Below are positions 9,382 to 60,913 of a DNA stretch of 64,000 nt, in pieces (position 1 is the stretch's first letter; each line of letters starts with the position of its first letter). Position numbers and translations under genes: made by a program. Below the pieces are notes generated by a model. The model worked only from the letters and a program-made list of their open reading frames with translations. It was not told where the DNA came from and searched no databases. Source of the stretch: Stictocephala bisonia (lineage: Eukaryota > Arthropoda > Insecta > Hemiptera > Membracidae); assembly GCA_035578905.1 (NCBI GenBank), contig JAQJVL010000542.1, positions 186,001 to 250,000 on the forward strand. The letters are read 5' to 3'.

Positions 9382-9435
9382 GTAACTCTTTCAGAACGAG
9401 CTGTGCATGAACTTCTTGAACCGAATGGATCACAG
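9382..9435 (+). CDS. Micro-exon A1
   Basis: A 54-nt candidate exon preceded by a pyrimidine-rich CAACTTTTCAG acceptor and followed by CAG|GTGAGTAA. Read in phase 0 it gives VTLSERAVHELLEPNGSQ. The other two phases contain stops (TAA at once, TGA at the middle), so phase 0 is the only coding phase. Six other copies exist in the window. It sits in the segmental duplication whose partner exon is A6, from which it differs by two replacement changes. I do not recognise the protein; the function is unknown. Confidence 0.6.
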
Positions 9436-9869
9436 GTGAGTAATTTATTATTTAAGAGGAAATATGTAACTATACAAAAATTAGTATAAGCCATCCAACC
9501 ATTGAGGAATTTTAGGTTGCCGTCCTACCATTTGGCTTAATCTCTCCTCAGGTGTCCTGATTACTTAAGTGTCCTTGGACACTTGTCCAAAGAATGAGAT
9601 TTGTTTCTTTTTCATTGTACTCGTGACAGGTTCTATCTCCTTGTAAATTGTCTTGTTAGAGGCTTGTAAATTGTTTATTAAATAAAAAGATGTACACTAT
9701 TGACACTAGTATTTATTATATTGTGTAGTTTTCACCATAATGTCTAATATTATTAATTAATTGAGTGTTAAATGCAATAAATATGAAATCTACTTTAGTA
9801 AATGTAATATTTAACTTTCATTAACATATTACTCTTTATTTATTATTACTACAATAATAACTGATATAT

Positions 9870-10440
9870 AGGTTGATCAACTCAAGATGGCCACAATTGG
9901 GATCTCAAAAAGTTCAAATTTTACAACAAACTATAAATGGGGAACTTAACCTCATTTTTTATGTTCAATACAATTACGTACTTCAAATTTAAAAATTCAG
10001 TCGCCATTTTCCAATATGGTCGTCAACTTTGAAATTTCTTATAGGAACCCTTATTTTTTATGATGGATTCAGGTTTTATAGTGATTTTAAAAATTGTTTA
10101 CTCTTGGTATTATTTTGATATACTTAACCGTTTCGCCACTAGGAGCGCTGAAAGTTTGAGAAATCCTTATTTCAACAAGATTAGAGAGGCATATTCTGCC
10201 ATTTACAAATAATAAAAAGCTTAACTTGGAATGTATTATTTTTAATCAGTTGAATGTTGAATTGCTCTTAGTTTCACAAATATATATTTTATACAAAATA
10301 TTACAATTACGTAGGTCAAATTTTGAAATTCGTTCACCATTTTCCAATTAGCGGTCAACTTTGAAATTACTTATAGTAACCCATATTTTGCTTGATGGAT
10401 TTAAATTTTTAATAGTGATTCTATGACTCTGTTACTCTTG
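9870..10440 (+). repeat. Mariner-type MITE family with internal direct repeat
   Basis: A non-coding repeat starting GGTTGATCAACTCAAGATGG. Related copies or pieces lie at 19074-19190, 57500-58150 and inverted at 23960-24252 and 24420-24592; the inverted ones end in CACCCTGTATA, typical of Tc1/mariner MITE ends. Inside, about 220 bp (from near 9973) recur from near 10305 onward, sharing CGCCATTTTCCAAT-like and TACTCTTGGTATTA segments. The second internal repeat was the mariner insertion site. Confidence 0.65.
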
Positions 10441-10446
10441 GTATTA

Positions 10447-11391
10447 CGAGGTACGTCCAGAAAGTAAGTTCCGTTTCCATTTATATCCGCTGCAGCGCTG
10501 CGATCGCAGTTCCGCGCATGCGCGGCAGACGCTCTGTATCAAGGAGAAGAAACGTGCGCCATTTTGAGATCGCTATCAGTCTCGTACACTTTGTTGTGCT
10601 TGTTTAAAATGTTGGTGTTGATCGAAAATCCCGCCGCTTGTGAAATCAGATCTGTGATTCGTTTTCTGAATGCTAAGAAAGTGAAACCGATTGACATTTA
10701 TCGGCAAATTTGTGAAGTTTACGGACAAAATGCGATGAGTGATTCAATGGTGAGAAGATGGGATGGAATGGAGGCACACTTCATCTCCAGCAAAGGTTAA
10801 GCCGAAAGAAATCTTGACACCTCGAAAAATCATGTGCACAGTGTTTTGGGACAGGAAAGGCATCTTACTGATTGATTTCTTACCGCGAGGTCAAACAATC
10901 AATGCAGAAGTTTACTGCGAGACACTGAGGAAATTGCGCCGCGCAATACAGAATAAGCGCCGAGGATTTCTGTCCAAAGGTGTTGTTTTTCTTCACGACA
11001 ATGCACGACCACACACTGCAAATGTGACGAAAAACCTCATACAGGGATTTGGCTGGGACGTGTTTGACCATCCTCCGTACAGCCCTGACCTCGCTCCTAG
11101 CGACTTTCATCTGTTCTTACATCTGAAGTCTTTCCTTGGCGGTCAACACTTCAACGATGACGAAGAGCTGAAAGAAAATCTTTCCAAATGGTTGAAGACA
11201 CAGGCGGCAACCTTCTATGAAGAAGGCATAGAAAAACTTGTGCCATGCTATGACAAATGCCTACAAAATTTCGGCAGTTATGTAGAAAAGTAGTTTAAGA
11301 GTTGTAGATTTTAGTGCAATAAATATTTTTCTGTATCTGTAGACAAATTATTTTTATTACCAAACGGAACTTACTTTCTGGAGGTACCTCG
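10447..11391 (+). mobile_element. Mariner element, internally deleted
   Basis: Terminal inverted repeats begin CGAGGTACGTCCAGAAAGTA and end with its imperfect complement (CTTTCTGGAGGTACCTCG), flanked by TA at 10445-10446 and 11392-11393. At 945 bp it is shorter than the roughly 1.3 kb usual for mariners, because the transposase centre is missing. The duplicated partner segment near 58100 has the intact empty TA site, so the insertion (or its absence) is directly documented. Non-autonomous at best. Confidence 0.92.
10609..11293 (+). pseudogene. Mariner transposase, centre deleted
   Basis: ATG 10609 opens the N-terminal helix-turn-helix part (SVIRFLNAKKVKPIDIYRQI, then QNAMSDSMVRRW). At about 10765-10800 the sequence jumps to the C-terminal catalytic half in another frame: KIMCTVFWDRKGILLIDFLP, FLHDNARPHT with the second catalytic Asp, and PYSPDLAPSDFHLF with the third, in D,D34D spacing. 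The region with the first catalytic Asp (GDETW-type) is deleted. The frame ends FGSYVEK at 11293, the usual mariner C-terminus. Confidence 0.9.
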
Positions 11392-11492
11392 TATTTTAAT
11401 ATACTTGCTGTTTTCTCGCTTGAAGCGCTGAAAATTTCTGAAATTATTATTACAGTTTTGCTTTTGCTTCTTTCTTGCCAAGCGAAATGCAC

Positions 11493-11672
11493 AGTCAAAT
11501 TAATTTATTAAAAGTTGTAAGTAAAGAAGAAATGTATTCTTAAAGTTAGATTGAAGCATTAAATGTTTGACTATCTTTGTATTAATAAAAGTAATATTAA
11601 AGAGAACATATGTAATGTGCGATCTCGTAGATATCATACTCATATTTTTGTCAAATCTGTCAGTTTAGCAGT
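11493..11672 (-). pseudogene. C48 peptidase tail, copy 1 (frameshifted)
   Basis: This is the partner of 58225-58520 and encodes, on the minus strand, the last part of a Ulp1/SENP-like (C48) peptidase after the catalytic cysteine. Two extra bases in an A run relative to the other copy break the frame. The catalytic Cys segment itself is beyond the duplication boundary and absent here. Confidence 0.5.
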
Positions 11673-12239: not shown

Positions 12240-14124
12240 AGCCAGTCTATATTTGATAGAGAATCCTTAAACTGTAAAATCTTACTATCTGTTATTGGTC
12301 TGGTACTTACAATTTTTGGTTTGTCACTATCTCATCCTACGTTTACATCTAATAAGCTTAACCATACACAATCATGATCAGAAAAAGGAAACTCAGTAAC
12401 ATTTTTTTTATATTGTTATGACTTAGATTTGTAAAAATCTAACGCAGGCTAGACCTCTTGAATTTATAATGAACACAATGAAAATATAACTGCCTGAGAA
12501 GATTTTTAAACTCATGCACATTTGTTTTATCTTTTAATACATCAAAATCAGCATTAATTTCACCGCCTAACACAATGCTATAATTTTTCAATTTGGGCTA
12601 GCTAAATAAATTAAAAACACTTTCTAGCCCTTCTAAAAAAACTGCAGGGTCACCCATGGGTGATCTATAAAGTGAGATTAAAACAAACTTAAACTTTTCA
12701 ATAGCAATTCCTGGTACTTCAAAATTCTTTTTGCAGACGAAACAATAAGTCTAATTTAATGAAATCTGGAAAAGTTCTAACCTAACATAAATTGATACTT
12801 CTCCATGTGCATGCTGTTTTCTACAATAAACTATTTTACTAGGCTATAATCATCTAGGACGAGAAAAGCGACTTCTTCTTAACACCAGTGTTCACTAAGG
12901 CATAAAGCATGAAAATCATTTTGCACCCCAAAATCATTCAGAACTACATGTTTATTAATTATACTTTGTACATTAAATTTTGAGGTTAACTTACATTCCA
13001 GGATAGGCTGATCAAAGTTGATTACTTTAGGCCTAATACAATCATTATTGGAAGACAATTTAGTGGACAAACAAAACTGTTTGGAGTTTACTACGTTTCT
13101 AAAAAAATCCTTATCAGAAAGTGAAATAATATCAAGTATATGAGTGTCAATACTGTTGACTATTTCTAAGATCTTATTACTAACATATTTCTTCCCCAAA
13201 GCATTTAAATGGAGTCCTTGAGTTGAATGAAATCTTCTACCTAACTTACTAATATCTACATATATTATATTAGAGAAATGTTTACACACTTTTGAGATGG
13301 CCTCATTTGCTTCACTCACTTCCTTGATGACAATAGACCAATTTGCAAGATCATGCCGATATGGGACTGAGAATACAACCACCTGTCTGACACTGCGTAG
13401 TTCCTGTAGTTTTTTCTTGAGTGAAGATATCAGATCTTTTTGTTCATTATTAGCAATGTCATTTGTACCAGCTATAAGATCTTAAACAAATGAATTGGTA
13501 CAGAATTGGTATATCATTCTGTACCAATTCGGAAACACCATATACTACTTGAGAAAATTTGGCCCCAGGCTTTACATTAGCAGAGAAATTATGGCTTATG
13601 TTAAGTTTGCAGAATTCCCTATACACTTCTCCCTAGGCTATTGGAATAAAGAAGAATATTCATAGACCTAATCTGTTTGTTATTTGTTTTATTGCATTTT
13701 ATTTCTTGAGAATTTTCTTCAAAATTTCAATCGGATAAAGCCAGTGCTGAAAATCTGTTTATTAATGGAGCAAACTGCATTTGGCAAGCAAGATGAATGC
13801 TAGGCTTATTTTTCTTTGCTTTTCTTAAAACTATCTCCCTTTTACTATGACGAAGCTCATCAGTACTTTTAATTTATCATTTTCTTCTTTAAAGCTTTCT
13901 AAATCTTTATTTATCTCTTTTAAGCTTGCTATTGAATCTTCCGTCTCTGAATGAGTCATTGCGTTCAACATCAATGTGGTGTCTTCTTTGTTTTGATATC
14001 TTGAGCAGTTCCTTTCAACATTTTCACTCAGTAAAGTACATTTAAAATGGTTCCAACAATCACAATTTATATATATATTTATATTTATATATCTGTGAGT
14101 GTGTAAAAACCAAATACCACTCAC
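12240..14124 (-). mobile_element. Decayed CR1-like LINE with esterase-type ORF1
   Basis: Read on the minus strand from 14124 down, a partial PHD-like piece (CDCWNHFKC) and a coiled coil (SLKEINKDLESFKEENDKL) are followed by an SGNH-esterase-like domain at 13500-13000 and then the start of an endonuclease (ALCLSEHWC at about 12880). Endonuclease remnants with many stops, such as FVLISLYRSPMGDP, continue to about 12300. The RT is not visible. PHD and esterase domains in ORF1 are known features of CR1-like LINEs. Confidence 0.65.
12879..13500 (-). pseudogene. SGNH-esterase-like domain joined to endonuclease start
   Basis: The minus strand gives LIAGTNDIANNEQKDLISSL just upstream of the longest frame; GTND matches the SGNH block III GxND motif. 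The frame then runs through VVVFSVPYRHDLANW and FHSTQGLHLNALGKKYV, where GLHLN carries the expected catalytic histidine. It ends in FHALCLSEHWC, the beginning of an endonuclease. In CR1-like LINEs this esterase is part of ORF1 or the ORF1/ORF2 junction; its role in retrotransposition is not settled. The Ser block is not clear here. Confidence 0.65.
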
Positions 14125-18384: not shown

Positions 18385-18438
18385 ATGGAACTTTCAGAAC
18401 GAGCTGTGCATGATCCTCTTGAAATGTGTAGATCACAG
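18385..18438 (+). CDS. Micro-exon A2
   Basis: A 54-nt candidate exon, acceptor CAACTTTTCAG, donor CAG|GTGAGTAA, phase 0 product MELSERAVHDPLEMCRSQ. It is preceded by the same repeated intron block (antisense LINE tail, then TTCTCTATCTTATAAGAATGG) seen before the other class A exons. Relative to the class A consensus nearly all changes are amino-acid replacements in the C-terminal third, while LSERAVH is kept. Confidence 0.55.
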
Positions 18439-18637: not shown

Positions 18638-18691
18638 GGGCAACTTTTAGAACGAGCTGTGCATGAACCTCTTGAACCGAGTGGATCACAT
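18638..18691 (+). CDS. Micro-exon A3
   Basis: A second 54-nt candidate only 199 bp downstream of A2: acceptor AATTTTCAG, phase 0 product GQLLERAVHEPLEPSGSH, donor CAT|GTGAGTAA. The last exon base is T instead of G, which weakens the donor (also seen in A5). The short A2-A3 intron shows a local tandem duplication of exon plus about 250 bp of intron. Confidence 0.55.
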
Positions 18692-22679: not shown

Positions 22680-22990
22680 AATCCATCTTTTATTCGTTTA
22701 ACTGTCCTATAGCTGTCCTATGATCTTTTGGTATAATCTTTCCTCAGCTGTCCTGAATAAGTGTCAGAGGAATGAGATTTTTTTTTTTTTTAATTGTACT
22801 GACGAGAGGTTCTATCTCCTTGTAAAATGTTTCATTGGAAGCTAGCCTAAAATCTAATGTTATCTTCAATCCTGGTTATAACATCCCACCATCATCTTTC
22901 TTAATTTACTTTAGACAAGATAAAGATTTTTTATTGTAATACTTTACATTGTTGATCAATCTCTACTTTCTCCTTTCTTTATCTAATAAG
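22680..22990 (+). repeat. Exon A intron block whose exon was lost
   Basis: The intron block that precedes class A exons (ATAGCTGTCCTATGATCTTT through CTTTATCTAATAAGAAT) is present, but at 22991 it switches to LINE copy 3 instead of running on to the acceptor and exon. One exon A unit was therefore deleted or replaced here. Confidence 0.7.
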
Positions 22991-23650
22991 AATAAGCTGC
23001 TGAATACAGTGCTGCCGTATGGCTAAATAGCACACATACAAAAGCAATTGATGCCCAGCATAATAGAGCCATGAGAGCTTTTAGTGGGACTCTCATTGCA
23101 ACTCCACTCCCTCGGCTCTCGATGCTGTTCAATGTAGCTGCCCCAGAAATAAGACGTCAGGAGGCATTACGTAAAAAATTCAATAAGATCTTGAATGCCC
23201 CACACCTCCCCATTACCCAGGATCTCCCACGTTAGAACGGTCGCTTAAAATCTCAAAACCTACCTCTACGTACTGCGTTCCAGTTGAGCAGATCAAATTT
23301 CTCGCCCAATACTAGTTGGGCCATAGCATGGAATAGATTTGATGGACGAAATAAGTTCCTTATAAACGATCTATCAATACCTGTAGGTGGAATGAACCTT
23401 CTCGTATGGAGTGGACATTATTGAATCGGTTCCGAACTGGAGTGGGCAGATGTAACTACTCGAAATACAAATAGGGACTGACAGTAGATCAGTCATGTGA
23501 TTGCGAGGAGTCTATCCAAACAATGGATCACATAGACACAGAGTGCCCCTTGCGCTGTTTTACGGAGGGATTAGCTAGTATAAAAATAATCAGTGAGGCA
23601 GGTCTTAAATGGCTTGATGGAATCGATTTAGCTTTGTGACAGGAGAAACA
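22991..23650 (+). mobile_element. Jockey-like LINE fragment, copy 3 (3' end)
   Basis: It contains only the C-terminal tail (GCTGCTGAATACAGTGCTGC onward) and 3' UTR of the same LINE family, ending TTAGCTTTGTGACAGGAG. Several stops break the frame. Its left edge is a clean joint with the truncated exon A intron block. Confidence 0.7.
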
Positions 23651-25966: not shown

Positions 25967-26020
25967 GTGGAACTTTCAGAACGAGCTGTGCATGGATCTC
26001 TTGAATCGATTGGATCACAG
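25967..26020 (+). CDS. Micro-exon A4
   Basis: A 54-nt candidate exon, acceptor GAACTTTTCAG, donor CAG|GTGAGTAA, phase 0 product VELSERAVHGSLESIGSQ. Core LSERAVH is kept, and the changes lie in the C-terminal half. The antisense frame here hits a stop, which argues that the plus strand is the coding one. Confidence 0.55.
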
Positions 26021-27000: not shown

Positions 27001-27450
27001 TTGCGTGCCTTGTATGGTATATATATGAAAGTTGTTGTTTCCAAGTGGATTTTGCTGTCTACATACATTATTATTCATTCATGTATAATATTGGCTAGTA
27101 TCACAGAGAAGAAACAAACAGAGGCTGCATGCAGTAGTACGCCAAATGCTTGTCGAATAGTTATTTCTCAAGGTCACCTTACGGGTAGCCGGGCCAGTCA
27201 TAAAAACAAAATGTCATTATGTAAATACATATTTACAGCAGTCATGATCTTTAAAAAAGGAATACATGTCGGTGGTATTGGCCCATTTATGTCCGATGGT
27301 ATTGATGTGGTCCGGTGTGTGTCATTTCAATCCCCATATTCCCAATAGCCAAAGCCATCTGCTGTTAATACTTTCTCCCTATCTCCTTAATATTTTTTTC
27401 TCCAGTAGTAAATTGAATATATATATTAATTTATCAGTTCAAATATTAAG

Positions 27451-27506
27451 TTACAAGATTTGGCACCAGATAATAACCTACTTGCTGAAATTTACGTGGC
27501 TCACCT
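27451..27506 (+). pseudogene. Relic of a class A exon
   Basis: The intron consensus on both sides is still recognisable: TATATTAATTTATCAGTTC upstream, and CACCTGTGAGCAATTTACTATT downstream in place of the usual CACAGGTGAGTAATTTATTATT. The acceptor polypyrimidine tract is lost, the interval is 56 nt (not a multiple of three) and the peptide no longer matches LSERAVHE. It is best read as a dead duplicate. Confidence 0.5.
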
Positions 27507-27856
27507 GTGAGCAATTTACTATTTTAAAGCATATGATATATAAAAAAAGTCAGTATAAACCAACTAACCAGTATCAATCAACAAGCTAGATACTACGGTA
27601 TAGCGATAGATGAAATATAAAATATTATATTTCTCATTGAGTTAACTTCAATGTGTTACAAGTTTTATTGTGTTGCTTTTAAACCATCAGCCAAAATTTA
27701 ATAAAAAGTAGTGTCTGGATATCACCTATTTCTCAATCCAAATTGGTTTCTGAAATGAATTGATAAATATCTTTATTAACAAAGTTTACAAATGGCGAAG
27801 TTAGGAGTACTGTAGTTAGGAGAGAGTACAAAGTGCACCTATCTAGTCCTCTCTTA

Positions 27857-28736: not shown

Positions 28737-28790
28737 GTGGATCTTTTAGAACGAGCTGCGCATGAACCTATTCAACGGAGTAGATCACAT
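28737..28790 (+). CDS. Micro-exon A5
   Basis: A 54-nt candidate exon, acceptor AAACTTTTAG (weaker, no C before AG), donor CAT|GTGAGTAA, phase 0 product VDLLERAAHEPIQRSRSH. It is the most diverged intact class A copy, and the weakened acceptor and donor may mean it is skipped or dying. Confidence 0.5.
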
Positions 28791-30295: not shown

Positions 30296-30400
30296 CCAAG
30301 AGGATATACAAGTCCTCACTCATCTGGTAGGCCTGTTATATCTACTAAACCTGCTATGAGTCCAGGAGAAATGCAAAAACTACACGCAGGTGGTTATTCA
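30296..30400 (+). CDS. Micro-exon B1
   Basis: A 105-nt candidate exon between CTGCTTTTTTTCAG and GTAAGTATAA. Only phase 0 is open; the other phases stop. The 35-residue product starts PRGYTSPHSSGRPVISTKPA and ends KLHAGGYS; it is Ser/Pro/Gly-rich without cysteine. Two more copies (B2, B3) exist. It differs from B2 at six codons, five of them replacements. The protein is not recognised. Confidence 0.6.
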
Positions 30401-34271: not shown

Positions 34272-35190
34272 TATATACATACATAATCAAATTTAAACTG
34301 TATTTATTTTGTAAAATTGTATAGACTAAGCTTTTTTTAACTCGTTTTTAAGCTTTTCAATATTTGAATTTTTAATATGGAAATAAACGTAAATTCATTC
34401 ATTCATTCAATACTGTTCTAATTCCTGTAGTTTACAGTTCCGGCTGATAAGTGGTAAATAACTTGCCTAATGTTTAGCTAAATGCTTTCATGCGCTTGAA
34501 AGATTTAGTTACCAGTATTTTATCGAATATTCAAACCAGGTGATTTCACCCATGTGAAGTCATAGTCTACTGCGCAGCCTCATCAGTATACCTACCGTCT
34601 TTTTTAGTTACCGTGGTTGTGGTTAGGTTTGGTCCGGTATTTATTTCAGCACTATGTAAGTTGTTTATTTATTCCAACAGCTGATTAATGAAACTATTAT
34701 AAACAGTTAATTGTCAAATTGGTATTACCATAGGGGTTGCATTGACACTTCTTCGAACCCCTGGGGTGGTTTCCTGATGGAATTTCAAAATAAAGATAGG
34801 CTTATGGGTTAACCAGAGACCCTAAGAATGCCTATGCAAAATTTCAGATGAATGGGTTCAGTAGTTTTTGTGTTATTGATTCACACACACAGACACCCTT
34901 AAATTTTTATATAATAGTAAGATTTTTTAAGTTTTAAGTTTTTCTCATATTATTTATGTATTCATTTTTGTTTTAATAAAGTGAGAGAGAGTTTACTTTT
35001 TCAATTAATGTATTGATCGCTGTTTTGACAATATATTTATTAGTGTACTGGAACCTCCAAACATGCTTAAGCCTTGGAGGCCCTATATTTTTTCTTGTAC
35101 AAATAAATTGTCATAATGATTTTCAATTTTAAAAATTATTAGTTTTGGTTTGTAAATATATTCAACGGTCAGGTATATATAATTTTCTTC

Positions 35191-35239
<49 letters not shown>
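35191..35239. repeat. (TTA)n microsatellite
   Basis: About 16 trinucleotide units in the intron before exon C1. The paralogous sites near 36586, 45395 and 48213 carry shorter tracts, so tract length varies between duplicates. Confidence 0.95.
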
Positions 35240-35240
<1 letters not shown>

Positions 35241-35497
35241 CATATTTAAATTATATTTTAAGTAATTTTTTGTTTCTCATATTTATCTTTGAAAAGTCAG
35301 ACCTGGCAAGAATGATAAAGAACAATATGGACAATAACCTTTTCAACTTATTATAATAAGATTTGATATCTATAATTGTACATTTTTTAAAACCTTGTAG
35401 AGTGAAAAAATAAATATCTGTATCTTATCTATCTTATCTTTATCTTATTTTGATTTATCAGATAAAATTGGATATTAATTTTATATTTCTGTTTCAG

Positions 35498-35530
35498 CAT
35501 CACCCAACCCTTTCACCTCAACACCATTCT
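35498..35530 (+). CDS. Micro-exon C1
   Basis: A 33-nt candidate exon between ATTTCTGTTTCAG and GTAAGTCATAG, giving HHPTLSPQHHS in phase 0. It has three relatives (C2-C4) with the same flanks. The intron upstream (CTTGTAGAGTGAAAAAATAAA region) is also shared. Being so short, it is supported mainly by conserved splice sites and recurrence. Confidence 0.55.
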
Positions 35531-36850
35531 GTAAGTCATAGAATAGTTTTTAATTTTTATGTATTGATCTCAAGTTAATTCAGCTATAATTTAGGACATT
35601 AACTATTAAATTTCATGTTTAAATAACAAATGTTGATTTTTTAGGATTTGTGTTGCTAGGCAATAATCAGCTGTTTCATTGCTGCCAAATTTTCACTCTA
35701 TTTTTACATCATCTAACCTATTGCTAATATCAAATCTATTGTGATGCTATAAATATATAAAGTAAATTTAAAAATTTATGTTTATTTTTTAAGTCTTTTA
35801 CTTTAAACGTTTTTATTCTTTTATAACAGGGCAACTTTTGTAAAATTGTTAATTCATATTGTTTCTTGCCAAAATAATAAAATTTCAAAATGTTTTCTCC
35901 GGATTTTTAACTACATACATCTCAATAAGACTAAACATTCTTTTTAGATTATTTACTTAATTTGTTAAGTGATCATTTATGCACTTCTAAAATTAAACAA
36001 AAATTGTACCCTGTTTGTTTAGTAAGATTTTGTAAACTAAATTTTACAATTGCGTAGACATTCATATATACATTCACAATTACCGATGTTTAGTGATTTT
36101 ATTTAACTGAATATTATCATAAATACCATAGGGGTTGCATTGATACTTCTTCAAACTCCTAGGGTGGTTTCCTAATGGAATTTCAAGAAAAAAGGCCTGT
36201 GTGTTAACCAGACACCCTAAGAATGCTCATGCAAAATTTCAGATAAATTGGTTCAGTAGTTTTTGCGTGATTGAGTAACACACACACACAGACACCATTT
36301 CTTTTTTATATAATAGTAAGATTTTTTAAGTTTATTTTTTTTACATTTTATTTATGTCTTCATTTTGTTTTAATAAAGCGAGAGAGTTTATTTTTTCAAT
36401 TAATGTATTGATCACTGTCTTGACTGTGTATTTATTAAAGTGTACTGGAACCTCCAAAGAGGTTCAGCCCTGGAGGCCCTATATTTTTTGTTGTAGAATA
36501 AAATTTTTATGATTTTCAATTTTTAAAAATTATTAGTTTTGATTTGTAAATATATTCAACGGTCAGGTAAATATAATTTTCTTCTATTATTATTATTATT
36601 ATTATATTATCACATTTAAATTATATTTTTAGATTACATTTTGTTTCTCACATTTTTTTAAAAAAAGTCAAATCTGGCAAGAATGATAAAGAACAATATT
36701 TACAATACCCTTTTCAATTTAATATAATAAGTTTTTATGTCTATGATTGTACATTTTGATAATCTTGTAGAATGAAAAAATCAACATATTTATGTATCTT
36801 ATCTTTATCTTATTTTAATTTATCAAATAAATATGGATATTTTATTACAA
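35531..36850 (+). repeat. Duplicated intron; expected B and C exons lost
   Basis: After exon C1 the intron follows the pattern that leads to B2 at 46302, but at about 36118 (AATATTATCAT) it switches to the 3' end of repeat R, so the expected class B exon is missing. From 36320 a second copy of the intron upstream of class C exons follows, but no class C acceptor or exon is found where it should end (near 36850). Confidence 0.65.
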
Positions 36851-38321: not shown

Positions 38322-38322
38322 T

Positions 38323-45609: not shown

Positions 45610-45642
45610 CACTGCCCAACCCATTCGCCTCAACCCCATTCT
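45610..45642 (+). CDS. Micro-exon C2
   Basis: A 33-nt candidate exon between TTTCTGTTTCAG and GTAAGTCATAG, giving HCPTHSPQPHS in phase 0. It is followed 660 bp later by exon B2, so C then B is the local exon order. Confidence 0.55.
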
Positions 45643-46301
45643 GTAAGTCATAGAATAGTTTTCAATTTCTATGTATTGATCTTAAGTTAATTTAGCTATA
45701 ATTTAGGACATTAACTATTAAATTTCGTGTTTATATAACAAAAGTTGATTTTTTAGGAATTTTGTTGCTAGGCAATAATCAGCTGTTTCATTGCTGCAAA
45801 ATATCCACTCTATTTTTACCTCATCTAACCTATTGCTAATGTCAAATATATTGTGATGCTGTAAATATATAACGTAAATTTAATAATTAATGTTTATTTT
45901 TTAAAGTACTTTACTTTAAACTTTTTAATTCTTTTATAACAAGGCAACTTTTGTGAAATTGTTAATTCATATTATTTCTTGCCAAAATAATAGAATTTCA
46001 AAATATTTTCTCCTGATTTGTAACTATACACATCTCAATAAGACTAAACATTCTTTTTAGATAATTTACTTAATTTGTTAAGTGATCTTTTATGCACTTC
46101 TAAAATTAAAAATTTTACCTTTTTGTTTAGTAAGATTTTTTAAATCTAAATTTTACAATTGCATAGACATTTATATATAAATTCACAATTACCGATGTTT
46201 AATGATTTCATTTAACTGAATGTTATCATAAGCGACTGAGGTAATATGCACAATCTGTAGCACGTTAATATATAACCTGGTTGCCTGTTTTTTTTTTTCA
46301 G

Positions 46302-46406
46302 CCAAGAGGATATACAAGTCCTCACTCATCTGGTAGGCCTGTTATATCTACTAAACCTGCATTGAGTACAGAAGAAATGAAAAAACTACACGCAGGTGGT
46401 TATCCA
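46302..46406 (+). CDS. Micro-exon B2
   Basis: A 105-nt candidate exon between TTTTTTTTTCAG and GTAAGTATAA, phase 0, beginning PRGYTSPHSSGRPVISTKPA and ending KKLHAGGYP. The first 19 codons are identical in nucleotide sequence to B1; the differences cluster in the second half, and five of six are replacements. Confidence 0.6.
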
Positions 46407-47946: not shown

Positions 47947-48486
47947 TTATTTAAGTTTAAGTTTTTTACATTTATTTATGTATTCATTTTGTTTTAATAA
48001 AGCGAGTGAGTTTATTTTTTCAATTAATGCATTGATTGCTGTTTAGACAGTATACTTTTTAAAGTGTACTGGAACCTCCAAAATGGCTTAGCCTTGGAGG
48101 CTCTATATTTTTTCTTGTACAATGACATTTTTATAATGATTTTCAATTTTTAAAAATTATTGGTTTTGGTTTGTAAATATATTCAACGGTCATGTGAATA
48201 TAATTGTCTTCTATTATTATTATATAACATTTAAGTTTTATTTTAGATAATTTGTTGTTTCTCATATTTATCTTTGAGAAGTAAGACTTGGCAAGAATGA
48301 TAAAAAACAATAACCTTTTCAATTTATTATAATAAGTTTTTGTATCTATGATTGTACATTTTAAAAATCTTGTAGAGTGAAAAAATAAATATCTGTATCT
48401 TTATCTATCTTATCTTTATCTTATTTTGATTTATCAAATAAAACTAATAGTGGAACAGAACCATTAATTTTATATTTCTGTTTCAG

Positions 48487-48519
48487 CAATGCCCAACTCA
48501 TTTGCCTCAACCCCATTCG
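48487..48519 (+). CDS. Micro-exon C3
   Basis: A 33-nt candidate exon between TTTCTGTTTCAG and GTAAGTCATAG, giving QCPTHLPQPHS in phase 0. It is the first of two class C exons within 650 bp. Confidence 0.5.
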
Positions 48520-49131
48520 GTAAGTCATAGAATATTTTTCAGTTTTTATGTATTGATCTTAACTTAATGCTATAATTTGGGACATTCACTATTAAATTTC
48601 ATGTTTATATAATAAAAGTTGATTTTTTAGGAATTGTGATGCTAGGAAATAATCAGTTGTTTCATTGTTGAAGATTTCCATTTATTTATTTATCAACCGA
48701 TGACACCACTTTAAACTGGGTCTGTAACTTGCACCTGTATTTTCATTAGAGCCGAGTCTGGGGTTGCTCACGTGTATACTAGGCAAAACTGGCATTCAAA
48801 GGATTAAATAAGCAATTTCATTCATTCTGTTTTGAGAACTATTCAACACTCATCCAAGAAAAATTCAAATATCAAATCTTCATTCAAAACTACAAACAAA
48901 TTAAAAAAACAAACTGAACACCACGAAAGACAAAATTAAAAATGGACCTGTATCAGGAATCTATGAAATTCTATGATATTCTGTTATGTAACATTCCAAA
49001 TATGTAATAAATAAATATAGTTTGTTGATTTTACTACTAGTAATGCTGTATTTATATTATACTTCAAATTACTTTGTTGTACGCTCTTATAATAGTGGAA
49101 CTGAATTATTAGGTTTATTTTTCTGTTTCAG

Positions 49132-49164
49132 CATCGCACAAGCCACTCGCCTCAACCCCATTCG
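49132..49164 (+). CDS. Micro-exon C4
   Basis: A 33-nt candidate exon between TTTTCTGTTTCAG and GTAAGTCATAG, giving HRTSHSPQPHS in phase 0. The upstream AATAGTGGAACTGAATTATT matches the intron before C2, and the downstream intron matches that after C3, so C3-C4 is a local tandem duplication. Confidence 0.55.
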
Positions 49165-50488: not shown

Positions 50489-50593
50489 CCAAGAGAATAT
50501 ACGAGTCCTCACTCATCTAGTAGGCCTGTTATATCTACTAAACGTGCATTGAGTCCAAAAGAAATGAAAAAACTACACGCAGGTGGTTATCCA
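50489..50593 (+). CDS. Micro-exon B3
   Basis: A 105-nt candidate exon between TTGTATTTCAG and GTAAGTATAA, phase 0, beginning PREYTSPHSSSRPVISTKRA and ending KKLHAGGYP. It differs from B2 at six codons, five of them replacements (G/E, G/S, P/R, T/P, E/K). It follows C4, repeating the C-to-B order. Confidence 0.6.
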
Positions 50594-51863: not shown

Positions 51864-53667
51864 TTATGTAAAGTTGTAAATTAATTTACGTTTAGTCCTC
51901 GTCTGAAGAGTCAGCAGTGCAGGTCCTGCATTCAACTCTTGCCGTGGAATGGTTCTTGCACACAAACCGAGTACAGAGTGAACAACGAATAGTGGTTTTA
52001 TTGTTTCAGTGTTTTCCACATTCATGGAAAGGTCCGCATCTGGCTTGAACAGCAGGTGGTATAGGGTTGGGCTGGTCATTTTTATATTGGGGAGGAATGC
52101 TTTTATATCCAGAGGTAAATTTTTTACATTAGCTCTACTTTTTAGCTGTTCGGTCATAAGACTAATGGCTAGTCCTTCTAAAAAGTCCATTCGGCTTTTA
52201 TTAGGCTCGTTATTGTTCATGTTATTAGCAACATAAATTACAAAAGCATTCACAGCAGTCATATCTAGAAATCTGAAAAACAAAGCTAATGGCCATCTTC
52301 TGGTTTTTATTGTCGTACTGTAGTTAGCACACTTTTGGACCACGGAGTCAACCCCCCCTTTTGTGCTATTATAATCTAATATGATCGTTGGTTTCCCCGT
52401 ATCCTCATCAATTTCTTCTTCGTCATGCATAGTAGACATCAATATGACGGCTTTGTTTTTTTTGGGCACGAATGAGACAATTGTACAGTTATCTTGGAAT
52501 CCAAATAGGGAAGATCCAATTTCTTTTGTTTTACTGGGAAGGAACTCACGTGGTATTTCAGGTCTATTTTTTTTCACTGTACCTAACAAAGTTAATTTAT
52601 TTTCTAATAGATACATTGCAAGCTCGTGAGTGGTGTAAAAATTATCTGTTGTTACATTTCTACACGTACCCTTTATTGGCTCTACTAAACGTTTTACAAC
52701 ATCAATAGTTTTGTTTGATGTTGCAAAAGGTCCTGCTACCTGTTTCCCACAGTAAATTTCAAAATTGCAAACATAAAATGTTTTAGCATCACACATGGAA
52801 TACATTTTCAATCCATACTTAGCAGGTTTGTTAGGCATGTACATGACAAAGCTGCAACGACCTCTAAATGGGTGTAACATTTCATCTATAGTTACGAACT
52901 CTGATGGACTGTAACAGTTTTGAAAGTTATCATTCAAAGCCGTGTATATTTGCCTAATCGGTGCTAGTTTGTCTGTAGCTGCTCTGGCAGCTCTCGTGTT
53001 TATGTCATCAAAACGGATTGACTGCAGGAGAAATCTGAATCTATTGATTCCAAACACAGCTCTGCATATCATTATGCCAGTGCCATTGGTTTTCCAAGCT
53101 CGTTTGGCATCAGCTTTACAGCTCTTGTTTATTGAAAGTATATACAAAACACCTAATAGAGCCATTATTTCATCCCTGGAAGTCTGTTTACAATCTCTAT
53201 CCCTTTCAAAACGGCCATCTAATTGTTTTTTCTCTATAAAAATATTTGTGTATTCAACTATCAAATCAATCATTTCAAGAGTTATAAACTTTTGAAAAGC
53301 ATCTAACTCACTTTTTGCATCTCGTGCAATACGTTTTGGTCCAGGTAATGTTTTTACAAGATTTTTTGATTTTGTTTTAGAAGAAAGGGTGCACGACCTA
53401 CTCAGCCAAAATTCATTATTTTGTTTACCCTGTCCTATAAATATTTGAAAATCTTCATTCGTACTTACAAGAGACTCGTTTCCATCATCACCTGACTGTT
53501 CACTGTCACTTGAATGGTTGTCTTGAAGAATATCCTCCCTTTCAGGTTCATTGCTGCTGATATCAGATAAATCAAAGTAGTCTTCATTGTTGTGATGGTT
53601 TCTTTCTTCATCCGAAAGTTCCTCCAAAGCTGTCGGCAGATCAACAAGCCTCACCACCCGTTGTTCC
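51864..53667 (-). pseudogene. piggyBac transposase, main exon
   Basis: After the proposed splice acceptor the frame begins EQRVVRLVDLPTALEELSDE and an acidic Ser/Asp-rich N-terminus. The DDE_Tnp_1_7-type core contains FVTIDEMLHPFRGR (Asp 1), NVTTDNFYTTHEL (Asp 2) and NSTKGGVDSVVQKC (Asp 3), the three catalytic aspartates of piggyBac. The protein is about 600 residues, usual for the family. The expected C-terminal Cys-rich zinc domain (CSLC, CKNH, CRTC) is encoded in a shifted frame, so one base is missing near 52005 and the native C-terminus is lost. Confidence 0.93.
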
Positions 53668-53828
53668 CTAAAAAAAAAAAAAAAAAAAAAAAAAAACACT
53701 TAATTTAGTAAAATATTATTACATTCAACACGCAAAGACAAAAGAGACCTAAAAAAAATGAAATTATCAACAAAAATCATAAAATGCATATTGAAAAGGC
53801 ATATTGCATAGAAAGAAAATGTACTTAC
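53668..53828 (-). other. Predicted 161-bp intron that splits the transposase start codon
   Basis: Minus strand: exon 1 ends GTGTAAACAT at 53829, followed by GTAAGTAC, a consensus donor. A T-rich intron ends in a run of about 25 T and TAG, after which exon 2 begins GGAACAACGG at 53667. Joining AT to G makes ATG followed by GAA CAA CGG, in frame with the whole transposase and with A at -3. Unspliced, the ATG at this place is followed at once by TAA, and the apparent poly-Phe N-terminus is only the pyrimidine tract. Confidence 0.7.
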
Positions 53829-54057
53829 ATGTTTACACGCTAGCGGTATGCGGTGCCGCAAACGTGATCCGCTCTGTTCAGAAGTCAACTGCTCACTGAA
53901 AAAACGGAGCCGAACTCCCCCCACCACTTCCTTCCCTTTGTCAAAACATGAAGAAAGAATACTACAACATCCGGGAGTTTTTAAGCCATCTAGGCCAATT
54001 TAAATATAACAAAATTAAAATTGCGGTACGCAGTGCCGCTTAGCGTGTAGTTGAGGG

Positions 54058-54680
54058 TTAAGTACATTTTTTAGTTAATATAAATAGTAGGTGACATGTT
54101 ACCCTATGTTGCCAATTACAACCAGACACTTCTTATTTACTAACATGTTAAGTACATTTTTTAGTTAATATAAATGTAGGTGACACGTTACCTTATGTTG
54201 CCAATTACAAACCACACACTTCTTATTTACTAACATGTTAAGTACATTTTTTAGTTAATATAAATGTAGGTGACACGTTACCTTATGTTGCCAATTACAA
54301 ACCACACACTTCTTATTTACTAACATGTTAAGTACATTTTTTAGTTAATATAAATAGTAGGTGACATGTTACCCTATGTTGCCAATTACAACCAGACACT
54401 TCTTATTTACTAACATGTTAAGTACATTTTTTAGTTAATATAAATGTAGGTGACACGTTACCTTATGTTGCCAATTACAAACCACACACTTCTTATTTAC
54501 TAACATGTTAAGTACATTTTTTAGTTATTATAAATGTAGGTGACACGTTACCTTATGTTGCCAATTACAAACCACACACTTCTTATTTACTAACATGTTA
54601 AGTACATTTTTTAGTTAATATAAATAGTAGGTGACACGTTACCCTATGTTGCCAATTACAAACCACACACTTCTTATTAA
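54058..54680 (+). repeat. 90-bp tandem array with a three-unit higher-order pattern
   Basis: TTAAGTACATTTTTTAGTTA recurs at 54058, 54148, 54238, 54328, 54418, 54508 and 54598, exactly 90 bp apart, giving nearly seven units. Units 1, 4 and 7 have AAATAGTAGG and ACCCTATG; units 2, 3, 5 and 6 have AAATGTAGG and ACCTTATG. The order a-b-b-a-b-b-a gives a 270-bp higher-order period. It is not a CRISPR array: units are contiguous and lack unique spacers. Confidence 0.95.
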
Positions 54681-56251: not shown

Positions 56252-58367
56252 GTCCAACATTAGTGTAGGTTTCAATTTAGATTGATAGTCTGTTTTTGTT
56301 TTTCCCCTCGTGGTGTCTGTAAATGATTTTTTAAATATTAATTTTGTTTATGGCTTTTGGTTTTGACATTTTGTACACCATTATTATGTTATTTTGTTTG
56401 TTACTTATTTTAAAACAGCAATCAGTGTTACTTCATTTGACCATTTGAATCATCTTCTTCTTGTGTTTCTTTGTCTTCTCTCAGCCCAGTATCTCTTCAT
56501 GTGTTCGTATCATAACTTTCTTTCATCATCTGGAATCAATCTTCCTATCCTTTGTATATTTATCTTAGTTTGTAGCCTGGTTTGCTTGTCATTTAGAACC
56601 TTGATTTTTTTGTCTTATTTTTCAAATCTTTAAATGAAATTTGCAACTCTCTCATATCTTACTTTTATTTGTTTTACTTTTCCATAGCTGTCCTATGATC
56701 TTTTGGCTTAATCTCTCCTCAGGTGTCGTGATTAAGTGTCCAAGGAATGAGATTCATTTCTTTTTCCTTGTACTCATGACAGGTTCTATCTCCTTATAAA
56801 CTGTTTCATTAGAAGCTAGTCTAAAATCTAAATTTATCTACTATTCCACCATCATCTTCCTTAATTTATTTGAGACAAGATAAAGATTTTTCATTTTATT
56901 ACTTTACATGGTTGATCAATATCTACTTTCTCCTTTCTCTATCTAATAAGAATTGCTTCTTTTTTATAAAATATTTTGTAAATATATTAATTTATCAATC
57001 AACTTTTCAGGTAACTCTTTCAGAACGAGCTGTGCATGAACCTCTTGAACCGAGTGGATCACAGGTGAGTAATTTATTATTTTAGAGGAAATGTGTATCT
57101 ATACAAAAATTAGTATAAGCCATCCAACCATTGAGGAATTTTAGGTTACCGCCCTACCATTTGGCTTAATCTCTCCTCAGGTGTCCTGATTACTTAAGTG
57201 TCCTTGGACACTTGTCCAAGGAATGAGATTTGTTTCTTTTTCATTGTACTCGTGACAGGTTCTATCTCCTTGTAAATTGTCTTGTTAGAGGCTTGTAAAT
57301 TGTTTATTAAATAAAGAGATGTACACTATTGACACTAGTATTTATTATATTGTGCAGTTTTCACCATAATGTCTAATATTATTAATTAATTGAGTGTTAA
57401 ATGCAATAAATATGAAATCTACTTTAGTAAATGTAATATTTAACTTCAATTAACATATTACTCTTTATTTATTATTACTACAATAATAACTGATATACAG
57501 GTTGATCAACTCAAGATGGCCACAATTGGGTTTAAAAAAGTTCAAATTTTACAACAAACTATAATTGGGGAACTTAACCTCATTTTTTATGTTCAATACA
57601 ATTACGTACTTCAAATTTAAAAATTCAGTCGCCATTTTCCAATATGGTCGTCAACTTTGAAATTCCTTATAGGAACCCTTATTTTTTATGATGGATTTAG
57701 GTTTTATAGTGATTTTAAAAATTGTTTACTCTTGGTATTATTTTGATATACTCATACTTAACCGTTTCGCTGCTAGGAGCGCTGAAAGTTTGAGAAATCC
57801 TTATTTCAACAATATTAGATATTAGAGAGGCATGTTCTACCATTTAAAAATAATAAAAAGCTTAACTTATAATGTATTATTTTTAATCAAGTGAATGTTG
57901 AATTGCTCTTATAGCTTCACAAATATATATTTTATACAAAATATTACAATTACTTAGGTCAAATTTTGAAATTTGTTCACCATTTTTCAATTAGCCGTAA
58001 CTTCAACTTCAAGTAACTTTGAAATTACTTATAGTAACCCATATTTTGCTTGATGGATTAAAATTTTTAATAGTGATTCTGTGACTCTTTTACTCTTGGT
58101 ATTATTTTAATATACTTGTTTTCTCGCTTGAAGTGCTGAAAGTTTCAGAAATTATTATTACAGTTTTGCTTTTGCTTCTTTCTTGCCAAGGGAAACGCAC
58201 AGTCAAATTAATTTATTAAAAGTTTTATAAAAGAAGAAATGTATTCTTAAAGTTAGATTGAAGTATCAAATGTTTGACTGTCTTTGTATCAATAAAAGTA
58301 ATATTAAAGAGAACATATGTAATGTGCGATCTCGTAGATATCATACTCATATTTGTCAAATCTGTCA
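56252..58367 (+). repeat. Segmental duplication copy 2 (partner 8632-11675)
   Basis: It aligns along its whole length with copy 1 minus the mariner. It includes exon A6, the antisense LINE tail, the MITE at about 57500-58150 and the C48 peptidase tail. The empty mariner target is at about 58103 (GGTATTATTTTAATATACTT). Confidence 0.9.
57011..57064 (+). CDS. Micro-exon A6
   Basis: A 54-nt candidate exon, acceptor CAACTTTTCAG, donor CAG|GTGAGTAA, phase 0 product VTLSERAVHEPLEPSGSQ, the closest of all to the class A consensus. It is the duplicate of A1. Confidence 0.6.
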
Positions 58368-58520
58368 GGTCTAGTTCGTCTGATAGCCATCGTTTGTTGT
58401 TGGTACAATTTAGTATGTAATCTATTATTGTTTCTGCAAAATACATCTTGTATATACCACAATCATATGTATTTTCCGGTTGGGGACACGGTTGCTCAAT
58501 GAAGCAGATTTTCTTGGCGA
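58225..58520 (-). pseudogene. C48 (Ulp1/SENP-like) peptidase fragment
   Basis: The minus frame reads CFIEQPCPQPENTYDCGIYK and then MYFAETIIDYI, the Q..N.YDCG.Y block that carries the catalytic cysteine of Ulp1/SENP peptidases, and continues through a LTNMSMISTRSHITYVL tail. Such enzymes remove SUMO or NEDD8; the short C-terminus after the Cys is reminiscent of SENP8/NEDP1-like members. The catalytic His/Asp half is missing: upstream sequence is unrelated. It may be a last exon on the minus strand or a captured fragment. Confidence 0.6.
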
Positions 58521-58551
58521 GGCCATAGGCCGGGCTCCACAACGAGGCCAC

Positions 58552-59239
58552 AGGCCGAGTTCCACAAAGGGCATAAAAATAGAGTTCCCAGGCGAGACCG
58601 AAGGCTAAGCTTACCTCATGAGCATAGCGAGTGATGAAAGTGGGGAAGACAAAGCTTGTTGGACATTTGCCATCTATACGTGAAAATTACCAATCACGAC
58701 GTTTTGATTTGGTAGAACCCAAACCTTTTTCAAGTGCTAAAAACTAAATTACATCTACACAAATATGTTATAAAACTACGTTCTTAAACTAATAAACTTA
58801 TCTATAATAATAACTTGGGTTTAAATATTGGGTGAAATCGGCATACCACAAGAAACTATGAATCAGAAAGATAACAAACCCTTTTAAAATTAACCTTTAG
58901 TTTAAGATTTTGTTTTTGTGTCTTTGAATGATAGGCGAGAAAAATATGGTATGATTTATTTTTTATTGAATTATTTCACATACTTAATAATTTTTTTAGT
59001 ATAATTGTGTTTGTAAATTTTAGGATTTAAAACTGGTTTCTTGTTGTTTTTGTTTTTTGTTGATTCTAAAGATTTTATTGAGTTGTTTTGTTGTATATAT
59101 AATAGTCCAATGTTACATTTATTCCATTGTTTGTTTTGTTATTTATTTAAAATTTTTATAATTATTGATATCTAATTTATTGTTGTATTGTTTTTGATTT
59201 AAGGAAGTTAAAAAAAAAAAAAAAAATTTACTATAATTT
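58552..59239. other. Unclassified stretch
   Basis: Bases 58515-58620 contain three imperfect repeats of the type CGAGGCCACAGGCCGAG. The rest is T-rich without frames. Confidence 0.45.
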
Positions 59240-59398
59240 AAATGTGTAAAAATATGTTTCACATGTAATTGTAACACCATAATTGTAAACAAATTATAGT
59301 TTTTCTCTCAATTAGCCTTGAGCTAGAGAGATAAATATAAACTGCTTGTAAAAATTGTAATTTTTCGCAAGTAATAAATATATTTGAATTGAATTGAA
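59240..59398 (+). mobile_element. LINE 3' end fragment
   Basis: The stretch ends AATAAATATATTTGAATTGAATTGA, a polyadenylation-like signal followed by a repeated TTGAA tail, as at other LINE 3' ends in this window. No coding is left. Confidence 0.45.
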
Positions 59399-60078
59399 CT
59401 ATCCACATTTTAACCTAGATCATAGAAGGGGGTACAACAAAATAAACTTCTGCTAAATATAAAAATTTTAACAAAGTTAAATTAATATAACCAATTAGGC
59501 GTGCCAAGGTCACGAAATCAACGAAAAAATGTTAAAACACAATTAAATTAATATTCAAATCAGACTGAAATGAGATTATACTAACTAATCATAAATAAAA
59601 TAAATATAAGGTACCTGAAAAACACTATTAATTTAAAATAACATTAAGCATGTACAAAAAATGATATATGTGACTCGGAAGGACTGAGACTACTATCCAA
59701 TCTAATTAACTATTACAAATACACTTTAACCTTAACAGACAACAATTATTAGGAATAAAACAATATAATAATCAAATATTACAAAATGATTAAGTCTTAC
59801 GACCCGCAGTGACGATGGCGTCTAGACGTCCCAGGCACGAAGTGAGGATGATACAATCCAAATGCAGAGTTTACGAAGTTCCCTCCAAGGTGATAAAACA
59901 CGGGGACAAGACAAAAATACACACTACACTCACAAGAACCATCCATAGACTGACGTGGTCAGGGACGTACGCTCCGAGATTGCCAGGAATGCGGTGACTC
60001 AGGTACGAGGACGTAGGCTCATGGGGTGTCTTCTTGTTGTAGGTGCAGGTGGTGTAGGATTCTGGTTAGATGATGTCA
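59399..60078. other. Gene-free stretch
   Basis: AT-rich to 59790, then about 240 bp that are GC-richer (from GACCCGCAGTGACGATGGCG). The short plus frames there show no recognisable motif. Confidence 0.45.
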
Positions 60079-60580
60079 TTAGTGTACTGAACTTTTTATC
60101 AAGTGTGTTTTTAAGTAAAGGAACCACATGTGTCTAACTTCTATGCTACTTTTACTGATTATTTGTTCATTATTTAGTTTCATAAAGGCACCTTCGATGA
60201 ATTTACATTTAAAAAAATGTGGTTCCCTGTGAAGTATTTTAGTGTTATCCCAGTTAAATTTGTGTTCATTGTTCCAAGCATGTTCAGCCAATTTAGAATT
60301 TGTAGTGTCTCCTTTTTTAATGTTATTTTTGTGTTCTTTTAGTCTAACTTCTAGTGGTATTTTTGTTTCCCCTATGTATTTTTCATTGCATTCACAAGTA
60401 ATGCAATATACCACATTTTTGGAGGATTGGTTAAAGACTGTCTTAATGTATTTTGTGTGTTGAGTGATGTTCTGATTTTGTATTTCCTAGCTTTGCGTCT
60501 GATTTTTTCTGAAAGGTTAGGCGTACCTGTATATGGAATGGACATGAATGACTTCTGCTTTTCTGTGTCAGTGGGTGTTT
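60079..60580 (-). pseudogene. Penelope-like element, GIY-YIG endonuclease end
   Basis: Minus strand: the pre-domain SFMSIPYTGTPNLSEKIRRK and NTLRQSL lead, after a frame change, to VYCITCECNEKYIGETKIPL, the GIY-YIG-type core with a CxC motif, then RLKEHKNNIKKGD, KLAEHAWNNEH and LNNEQIISK. This is the C-terminal endonuclease of a Penelope-like retroelement. The RT that should lie upstream (above 60580) is replaced by the exon A intron block. Confidence 0.75.
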
Positions 60581-60589
60581 GTTTGTCTA

Positions 60590-60874
60590 AGGAATGAGTT
60601 TTGTTTCTTTTTAATTGTACTCATGACAGGTTCTGTCTCCTTATAAACTGTTTCATTAGAAGCTAGTCTAAAATCTAATTTTATCTTCTACCCTGGTCAT
60701 ATCATCCCACCATCATCTTTCTTAATTTAACTGAGACAAGATAAAGATTTTTTTATTTTAATACTTTACATTGTTGATCTATCTCTACTTTCTCCTTTCT
60801 CTATCTAATAAGAATGGCTTCTTCTGTATATAAAGTATTTTGTAAACATATTAATTCATCAATCAACTTTTCAG
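60590..60874 (+). repeat. Exon A upstream intron block, copy 7
   Basis: TAAGGAATGAGTTTTGTTTC onward matches the intron preceding the other class A exons up to the acceptor. It is truncated on the left by the Penelope-like fragment. Confidence 0.75.
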
Positions 60875-60913
60875 GTGGAACTTTCAGAACGAGCTGTGCA
60901 TGAACCTCTTGAA
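60875..60913 (+). pseudogene. Micro-exon A7, cut by the gypsy element
   Basis: After CAACTTTTCAG, phase 0 reads VELSERAVHEPLE, identical to the class consensus, and is then replaced at about 60914 by gypsy sequence. The donor is gone and the frame reaches TGA at 60956. The exon was intact until the rearrangement. Confidence 0.7.

What the first reader, a model, noticed from the sequence alone, without database searches (positions are those of the whole stretch)
9382..60913. A dispersed micro-exon locus with three repeated exon classes
Fourteen short segments in three families (A 54 nt x7, one truncated; B 105 nt x3; C 33 nt x4) are all on the plus strand. All have acceptor and donor consensus, are multiples of three, and share phase 0; for A and B the other phases contain stops. 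Flanking introns are duplicated with the exons. Exon order in the later part is C then B. Symmetric short exons can be added or dropped without a frameshift, the design known from micro-exon gene families of secreted proteins (schistosome MEGs, aphid bicycle genes), though those differ in sequence and I make no homology claim. The product would be Ser/Pro/His-rich and repetitive. I do not recognise it.
Basis: partly seen in the sequence, partly recalled or inferred. Interest (0 to 1): 0.88.

Follow-up and report, generated by a model that had tools for sequence, protein, structure and literature searches.

The report
Locus of repeated symmetric micro-exons
A transposon-filled stretch of what is likely an arthropod genome carries thirteen intact small exon-like segments in three repeated classes, which are predicted to splice together in one reading frame into a Ser/Pro/His-rich repetitive protein, and in which one class appears to change its amino acids unusually fast.

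Summary
Thirteen complete segments (A 54 nt x6, B 105 nt x3, C 33 nt x4) and one truncated A lie on the plus strand; all thirteen have AG/GT borders, a length divisible by three and an open phase 0. A scan of 109 direct repeat alignments for conserved symmetric phase-0 exons returned exactly these 13 on plus and 2 segments on minus. The intact exons carry no indel or stop although their flanks carry indels; one decayed A unit does not keep frame. Copies spread as exon-plus-intron blocks. Class A shows 23 nonsynonymous to 1 synonymous change, but 19 of 424 overlapping intron windows are as skewed. Phase 0 and the lack of C-Y-C pairs speak against aphid bicycle genes; B exceeds the exon range of schistosome MEGs. 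Best reading: the middle of an undescribed micro-exon gene, probably arthropod, for a repetitive, likely secreted protein. Splicing, one-gene status and secretion are untested; genome-wide copy number could not be checked.

The parts
9382..9435 (+). exon A1, 54 nt, VTLSERAVHELLEPNGSQ
18385..18438 (+). exon A2, 54 nt, MELSERAVHDPLEMCRSQ
18638..18691 (+). exon A3, 54 nt, GQLLERAVHEPLEPSGSH
22743..22994 (+). upstream half of an A unit that has lost its exon
   Evidence: nhmmer with the A upstream profile, E 3.2e-61
25967..26020 (+). exon A4, 54 nt, VELSERAVHGSLESIGSQ
27369..27570 (+). old, decayed eighth A unit: flanks recognisable, exon region 56 nt by my count and not symmetric
   Evidence: nhmmer E 6.3e-6; alignments at 63-66% identity and downstream profile E 5e-6
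28737..28790 (+). exon A5, 54 nt, VDLLERAAHEPIQRSRSH; weak acceptor
30296..30400 (+). exon B1, 105 nt, PRGYTSPHSSGRPVISTKPAMSPGEMQKLHAGGYS
35498..35530 (+). exon C1, 33 nt, HHPTLSPQHHS
45610..45642 (+). exon C2, 33 nt, HCPTHSPQPHS
46302..46406 (+). exon B2, 105 nt, PRGYTSPHSSGRPVISTKPALSTEEMKKLHAGGYP
48487..48519 (+). exon C3, 33 nt, QCPTHLPQPHS
49132..49164 (+). exon C4, 33 nt, HRTSHSPQPHS
50489..50593 (+). exon B3, 105 nt, PREYTSPHSSSRPVISTKRALSPKEMKKLHAGGYP
57011..57064 (+). exon A6, 54 nt, VTLSERAVHEPLEPSGSQ
60875..60914 (+). A7, truncated exon that runs into retrotransposon-like sequence; no donor
34409..35681 (+). block of repeated sequence plus exon C1; matches 47432-48667 (with C3) in two adjoining alignments
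   Evidence: pair alignments
8631..10446 (+). A1 duplication block, 94% identical to 56257-58104 (A6)

Best explanation
This is likely the repetitive middle of a single protein-coding gene whose thirteen intact segments are predicted to act as interchangeable phase-0 micro-exons. The exon-plus-intron blocks are shown by alignment to be copies of one another; that they were copied by local segmental duplication is inferred. Because every intact exon has a length divisible by three in the same phase, a copy could be gained, lost or skipped without shifting the frame (follows from the sequence; splicing itself is inferred). The mature protein would be a chain of 18-, 35- and 11-residue modules, rich in Ser, Pro and His, probably disordered and probably secreted or structural (inferred). 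The A modules appear to diverge in amino acids faster than their silent sites and the adjacent introns do, which would fit selection for variety. Promoter, signal peptide and terminal exons would lie outside the window.
For: Paired scan of 109 direct repeat alignments returns exactly the 13 exons on plus against 2 segments on minus. All 13 keep AG/GT, frame and open phase 0. No indel among the intact exons, against 24, 9 and 38 pairwise indel events in the flanks of A, B and C. Intron columns within 30 nt of the splice sites vary less than distal ones, 29 of 160 against 184 of 594, P 0.001. A: 23 nonsynonymous to 1 synonymous change, simulated P 0.002; dN 0.243, dS 0.056; exon pi 0.176 against 0.109 upstream and 0.087 in the first 30 nt downstream. 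B exon varies less than its distal intron (11 of 105 against 48 of 195 columns, P 0.004). Block alignments extend well beyond the exons. Composition of the 257-residue concatemer: Ser 15.6%, Pro 12.5%, His 10.1%.
Against: No transcript data. No relative found in the 5.8-billion-protein set, which does hold arthropod proteins, although length, word and candidate limits could hide one. No first or last exon or signal peptide was identified. Introns reach 10 kb and hold transposons. One A copy is cut, one decayed A unit has lost symmetry and was left out of the indel, stop and substitution counts, and one A unit has lost its exon, so part of the locus is decaying. The diversification signal is limited to A: B is 9 to 2 and C 8 to 5, and C has dN below dS (0.185, 0.434). 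19 of 424 overlapping intron windows reach the same nonsynonymous share. Exon A against its upstream intron gives Fisher P 0.083 and against distal intron P 0.52; all exons against proximal intron P 0.42.
Confidence: 0.55

Rival explanations
1. The units are a transposable or satellite-like element whose splice-like sites are incidental or serve the element; the openness of the frames is luck.
For: The window holds many transposons. A sequence in the A-unit tail (57494-57946) also occurs inverted at 23890-24253. A7 abuts a retrotransposon-like sequence. A family stays free of stops by chance with probability 0.18 (A), 0.70 (B) or 0.66 (C). One further copy of the sequence that precedes exon C lies at 36124-36841 without a C exon.
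Against: All 14 copies, and the decayed and exonless A units, are on plus. I saw no terminal inverted repeats or target duplications at the A-unit ends printed (by eye only). Intact exons have no indels while flanks do, and the minus strand gives almost no equivalent.
Confidence: 0.14
2. A relic: a once functional micro-exon gene now decaying under transposon insertion, no longer expressed.
For: Truncated A7, decayed A unit at 27369-27570, exonless unit at 22743-22994, transposons through the locus.
Against: 13 of 13 complete exons keep sites and frame, including the pair in the 94% identical recent duplication.
Confidence: 0.14
3. Clusters of mutually exclusive alternative exons of an ordinary gene, of which one copy per class enters each mRNA.
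For: Same-length, same-phase exon paralogues are what such clusters look like (recalled).
Against: A copies lie on both sides of the interleaved B and C copies, so classes are not contiguous; symmetric exons give no frame-based enforcement of exclusion. No splicing data.
Confidence: 0.08
4. Repeated linker exons of a large intracellular structural protein (muscle, cuticle or scaffold type) rather than a secreted one.
For: Repetitive Ser/Pro-rich symmetric exons occur in such genes too (recalled); no signal peptide was identified in the window.
Against: No Pfam match above cut-off and none in solved structures for exon B2, the only one tried; the skewed A changes fit a conserved scaffold poorly.
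Confidence: 0.09

Closest known systems
Schistosome micro-exon genes (MEGs)
   Same: Most of the coding region in very small symmetrical exons separated by long introns; high dN/dS in the mature parts; similar transposable elements enriched at the genes (PMC4350168 and PMC10526429; passages seen).
   Different: MEG exons are 6-81 bp, mostly 15 bp, with introns up to about 5 kb, and they appear restricted to flatworms. Here exons are 33, 54 and 105 nt in three repeated classes, gaps reach 10 kb, and the named relatives of the window's transposase are arthropod.
Aphid bicycle and megacycle genes
   Same: Many small internal exons almost all in one phase; fast evolution; megacycle has more than 100 microexons, in one case 118 exons over about 100 kb, with internally repeated units (PMC9168663, abstract and passages seen).
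   Different: Bicycle internal exons are almost all phase 2, most of the proteins carry a pair of C-Y-C motifs and they have saposin-like folds (PMC13041983, passages seen). Here phase 0, and 3 Cys in 257 residues.
Ameloblastin (SCPP enamel matrix gene of vertebrates)
   Same: Small exons with two to four prolines each that are duplicated and lengthen a secreted proline-rich protein; 21 nt of intron on each side rather well conserved; five codons under positive selection (PMC4518657, passages seen).
   Different: Vertebrate, with 13-residue duplicated exons; fewer copies and, in the passages seen, no interleaved classes.

Membership tests
Schistosome MEG | small exons mostly a multiple of three | tested here: met
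   13 of 13 complete exons
Schistosome MEG | exon length 6-81 bp, majority 15 bp | tested here: not met
   33, 54 and 105 nt against PMC10526429
Schistosome MEG | introns 0.1 to about 5 kb | tested here: not met
   gaps from 0.2 to 10.1 kb between successive intact exons (coordinates)
Schistosome MEG | N-terminal signal peptide | not testable with these tools
   no 5' exon identified in the window
Schistosome MEG | flatworm genome | tested here: inconclusive
   species unknown; among the 120 listed hits of the piggyBac-like transposase every one that names an organism names an arthropod, most being unnamed; such elements can move between species
Aphid bicycle | internal exons almost all phase 2 | tested here: not met
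   A and B open only in phase 0 as families; definition
Aphid bicycle | pair of C-Y-C motifs (most members) | tested here: not met
   3 Cys in the 257-residue concatemer; definition; the unseen ends of the protein could differ
Aphid bicycle | many exons (mean about 17, minimum 5) | tested here: met
   13 predicted here, if they are one gene; definition
Aphid bicycle | saposin-like fold | not tested
   no full-length protein available
SCPP / ameloblastin | small Pro-rich exons duplicated in frame | tested here: met
   comparison
SCPP / ameloblastin | sequence homology to the family | tested here: inconclusive
   no Pfam match to the concatemer above cut-off; no homologue within the limits
Transposable element | dispersed in both orientations with defined ends | tested here: inconclusive
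   within the window not met: all copies on plus, no terminal repeats seen by eye at the A-unit ends; genome-wide not answered (and ten repeats)
Mutually exclusive exon cluster | contiguous same-class exons, one used per mRNA | tested here: inconclusive
   A copies not contiguous; usage not testable without RNA

The most novel reading that the evidence does not exclude
An independent, previously undescribed origin of the micro-exon design in an arthropod: a gene of three interleaved phase-0 exon classes that generates protein variety by copying exon-plus-intron blocks and by splicing, with its A modules under diversifying selection much as in host-interface proteins.
Probability: 0.28. Interest if true: 0.75.

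Novelty: new variant of a known kind. Interest (0 to 1): 0.52.

Why it matters
Micro-exon genes are unusual and hard for automatic annotation (said of the schistosome ones), and in the schistosome and aphid cases encode host-interface proteins. A separate example with a different phase and three exon classes would let one ask whether symmetric tiny exons are a general route to fast-evolving repetitive proteins. It would also show block duplication of exons in the act, with fresh (94%), older, decayed and exonless copies side by side.

Tried and rejected
Rejected: bicycle membership (phase 2) and strict MEG membership (exon length). Rejected as further exons: 37202-37246 (antisense within a mariner ORF region), 63958-63990 (retrotransposon-like region), 40282-40308 (9 codons, no repeat support); 31510-31632/46902-47024, conserved but not open in phase 0 in both copies.

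Led nowhere: protein search with the 257-residue concatemer (the 7999 candidates sharing most words were scored, none at E <=1; only lengths of about 141-450 were eligible); search around exon B3 in its unspliced frame (no candidate shared three words); PDB with exon B2 only; Pfam with the concatemer and exon B3 (two matches below cut-off, best E 0.036); Rfam and tRNA scans of the window (0 and 0); viral and prokaryote contigs with a 117-residue composite query (10 and 358 pattern matches, none a relative) and with exact DNA patterns (0 matches). Nothing in those listings looked to me like this locus; I saw listings only, apart from passages of the five papers named.

Weakened: an excess of exon over intron divergence in A holds against the nearest 30 nt of intron (Fisher P 0.028) but not against the whole upstream stretch (P 0.083) or distal intron (P 0.52).

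Mended on re-reading: the sequence copied together with exon C had been called a retroelement in my draft; I did not identify it, so it is now called repeated sequence. The decayed A unit with an asymmetric exon region had not been set against the indel count; it now is. For these two reasons I lowered the best explanation from 0.58 to 0.55 and raised the transposon rival from 0.12 to 0.14 and the relic rival from 0.13 to 0.14. An earlier count said 9 known exons among the 11 candidates; the correct number is 8.
Full report
What is there. The window is AT-rich and holds many mobile elements: reverse-transcriptase ORFs of LINE type, two mariner-like elements, a piggyBac-like transposase, a GIY-YIG fragment (Penelope-like) and, at the right end, a retrotransposon-like stretch with an aspartyl-protease match below its cut-off (element names beyond the Pfam domains are recalled). 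Each complete segment is preceded by AG and followed by GT, has a length divisible by three (54, 105 or 33 nt) and is open in phase 0. A and B are closed in the other plus phases as families (two of six A copies are open at offset 1); C is too short to decide.

Is it more than chance. With recalled splice-site matrices, symmetric phase-0 candidates at acceptor >=6 and donor >=7 bits number 11 on plus, 2 on minus and 2.5 on average in 10 Markov simulations; 8 of the 11 are among the 13 exons. A stronger test does not presuppose the exons: I took the 109 direct BLAST alignments of the window with itself (E <=1e-5, at least 40 columns) and asked where both copies carry a homologous acceptor, a homologous donor and a symmetric open phase-0 segment of equal length. 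On plus the answer is 13 segments, and they are the 13 exons; on minus it is 2 segments of one repeat pair beside LINE-like ORFs. With the acceptor cut-off raised from 3 to 5 bits it is 12 and 0. Allowing any length and phase gives 49 and 6 segments, many of the 49 nested in A and B. The lower cut-offs were chosen after seeing the scores of the exons, and the 13 are three independent families.

How the copies arose. The copies are blocks of exon plus intron. The A1 block 8631-10446 matches 56257-58104 (A6) at 94% and continues beyond a mariner-like insertion in the first copy. In the C and B part, 34409-35202 matches 47432-48223 and, adjoining it, 35227-35681 matches 48212-48667, so about 1 kb of upstream sequence and exon C were copied together; 44823-45504 carries part of the same sequence ahead of C2; 35473-36122 matches 45585-46231; and 29995-30579 (B1) matches 46000-46583 (B2). 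That upstream sequence also occurs at 36124-36841 without a C exon, and I did not identify what it is. The long blocks and the single orientation fit local segmental duplication better than transposition of the unit. Older stages remain: an A unit at 22743-22994 that lost its exon, and an eighth A unit at 27369-27570, 63-66% identical to the others, whose exon region, 56 nt by my count, is no longer symmetric.

Evidence that selection sees these exons. The flanks hold 24 (A), 9 (B) and 38 (C) pairwise indel events while the intact exons hold none; from these rates 6.9, 3.9 and 4.4 pairwise events would be expected in the exons (5 of 6 intact A copies, all B and C; the truncated and the decayed A unit left out, the latter with an insertion in its exon region). 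Pairwise events are not independent: dividing by the comparisons each copy enters gives roughly five expected events, by hand. No stop arose; the chance of that alone is 0.18, 0.70 and 0.66, which is not strong. Intron columns within 30 nt of the splice sites vary less than those further out (29 of 160 against 184 of 594, P 0.001; singly P 0.029 for A, 0.040 for C, 0.24 for B), as expected if splicing is used; alignment quality falling with distance may add to this. Family A has 23 distinct nonsynonymous changes and 1 synonymous (simulated P 0.002, 6 of 6 intact copies), dN 0.243 and dS 0.056 with 0.001 of codon bootstraps at or below zero difference, and codon positions 1 and 2 vary about twice as much as position 3 and the upstream intron (0.217, 0.200, 0.111 and 0.109, 5 copies). 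The results against: 19 of 424 overlapping intron windows treated as codons reach the same nonsynonymous share, although none of the 8 open ones does; exon A against its upstream intron gives P 0.083, and distal intron is as variable as exon A; B (9 to 2) is near neutral in this count, and C (8 to 5; dN below dS) shows no excess. I read this as suggestive, not proven, diversification of A.

What it is not, and what it resembles. No Pfam family reaches its cut-off, exon B2 has no PDB match, and no homologue appears among the candidates scored or around exon B3 read unspliced. That database does hold arthropod proteins: the piggyBac-like transposase of the window has 861 hits, 120 listed, and every listed hit that names an organism names an arthropod. 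This is the sole ground for calling the genome arthropod. Aphid bicycle genes have almost only phase-2 internal exons (PMC9168663, passages) and most of their proteins carry C-Y-C pairs (PMC13041983, passages); neither holds here. Schistosome MEGs share symmetric small exons and fast evolution (PMC4350168, passages), but their exons are 6-81 bp and mostly 15 bp (PMC10526429, passages). Vertebrate ameloblastin offers a mechanical parallel: small proline-rich duplicated exons with conserved intron borders in a secreted protein (PMC4518657, passages).

Verdict. The anatomy is real and unusual. The most likely mechanism is in-frame modular growth of a repetitive, likely secreted protein through block duplication of symmetric micro-exons, with splicing able to vary the set. 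Shown: positions, frames, splice-like borders, duplicated blocks, lack of indels among the intact exons. Inferred: that they are spliced, belong to one gene, and encode a secreted, disordered protein. Not testable here: transcription and genome-wide copy number, because the genome search gave no answer in 11 tries.

Noticed in passing
51864-53699 (-) and 54057-54678: A long uninterrupted piggyBac-like transposase ORF (611 aa between stops; Pfam DDE_Tnp_1_7) with a 90-bp tandem array of 6.9 copies nearby.
   Followed up: partly
10446-11392: A mariner-like element with terminal inverted repeats inserted inside the A1 duplication block; its transposase lies in two overlapping ORFs in different frames.
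   Followed up: partly
36969-38329: A second mariner-like element on the minus strand with inverted terminal repeats and two overlapping ORFs.
   Followed up: no
58225-58686 (-): Ulp1-type protease fragment (Pfam Peptidase_C48, E 9.6e-5) whose frame runs into the end of the A6 block.
   Followed up: partly
12879-13481 (-) and 40696-41136 (+): Two ORFs of similar look (by eye); the first has a GDSL-lipase match below cut-off, the second was not searched. Possibly esterase-like ORFs of retroelements.
   Followed up: no
33276-34275: Large near-palindrome: arms of 271 nt, 94% complementary, 458 nt apart.
   Followed up: no
5746-8631: LINE-like ORFs followed by a short TATCATT array (8607-8631) that ends at the left border of the A1 block.
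   Followed up: no
23890-24253: Inverted copy of a sequence found in the tails of A units (57494-57946, 9865-10306), suggesting a dispersed element within the unit.
   Followed up: partly
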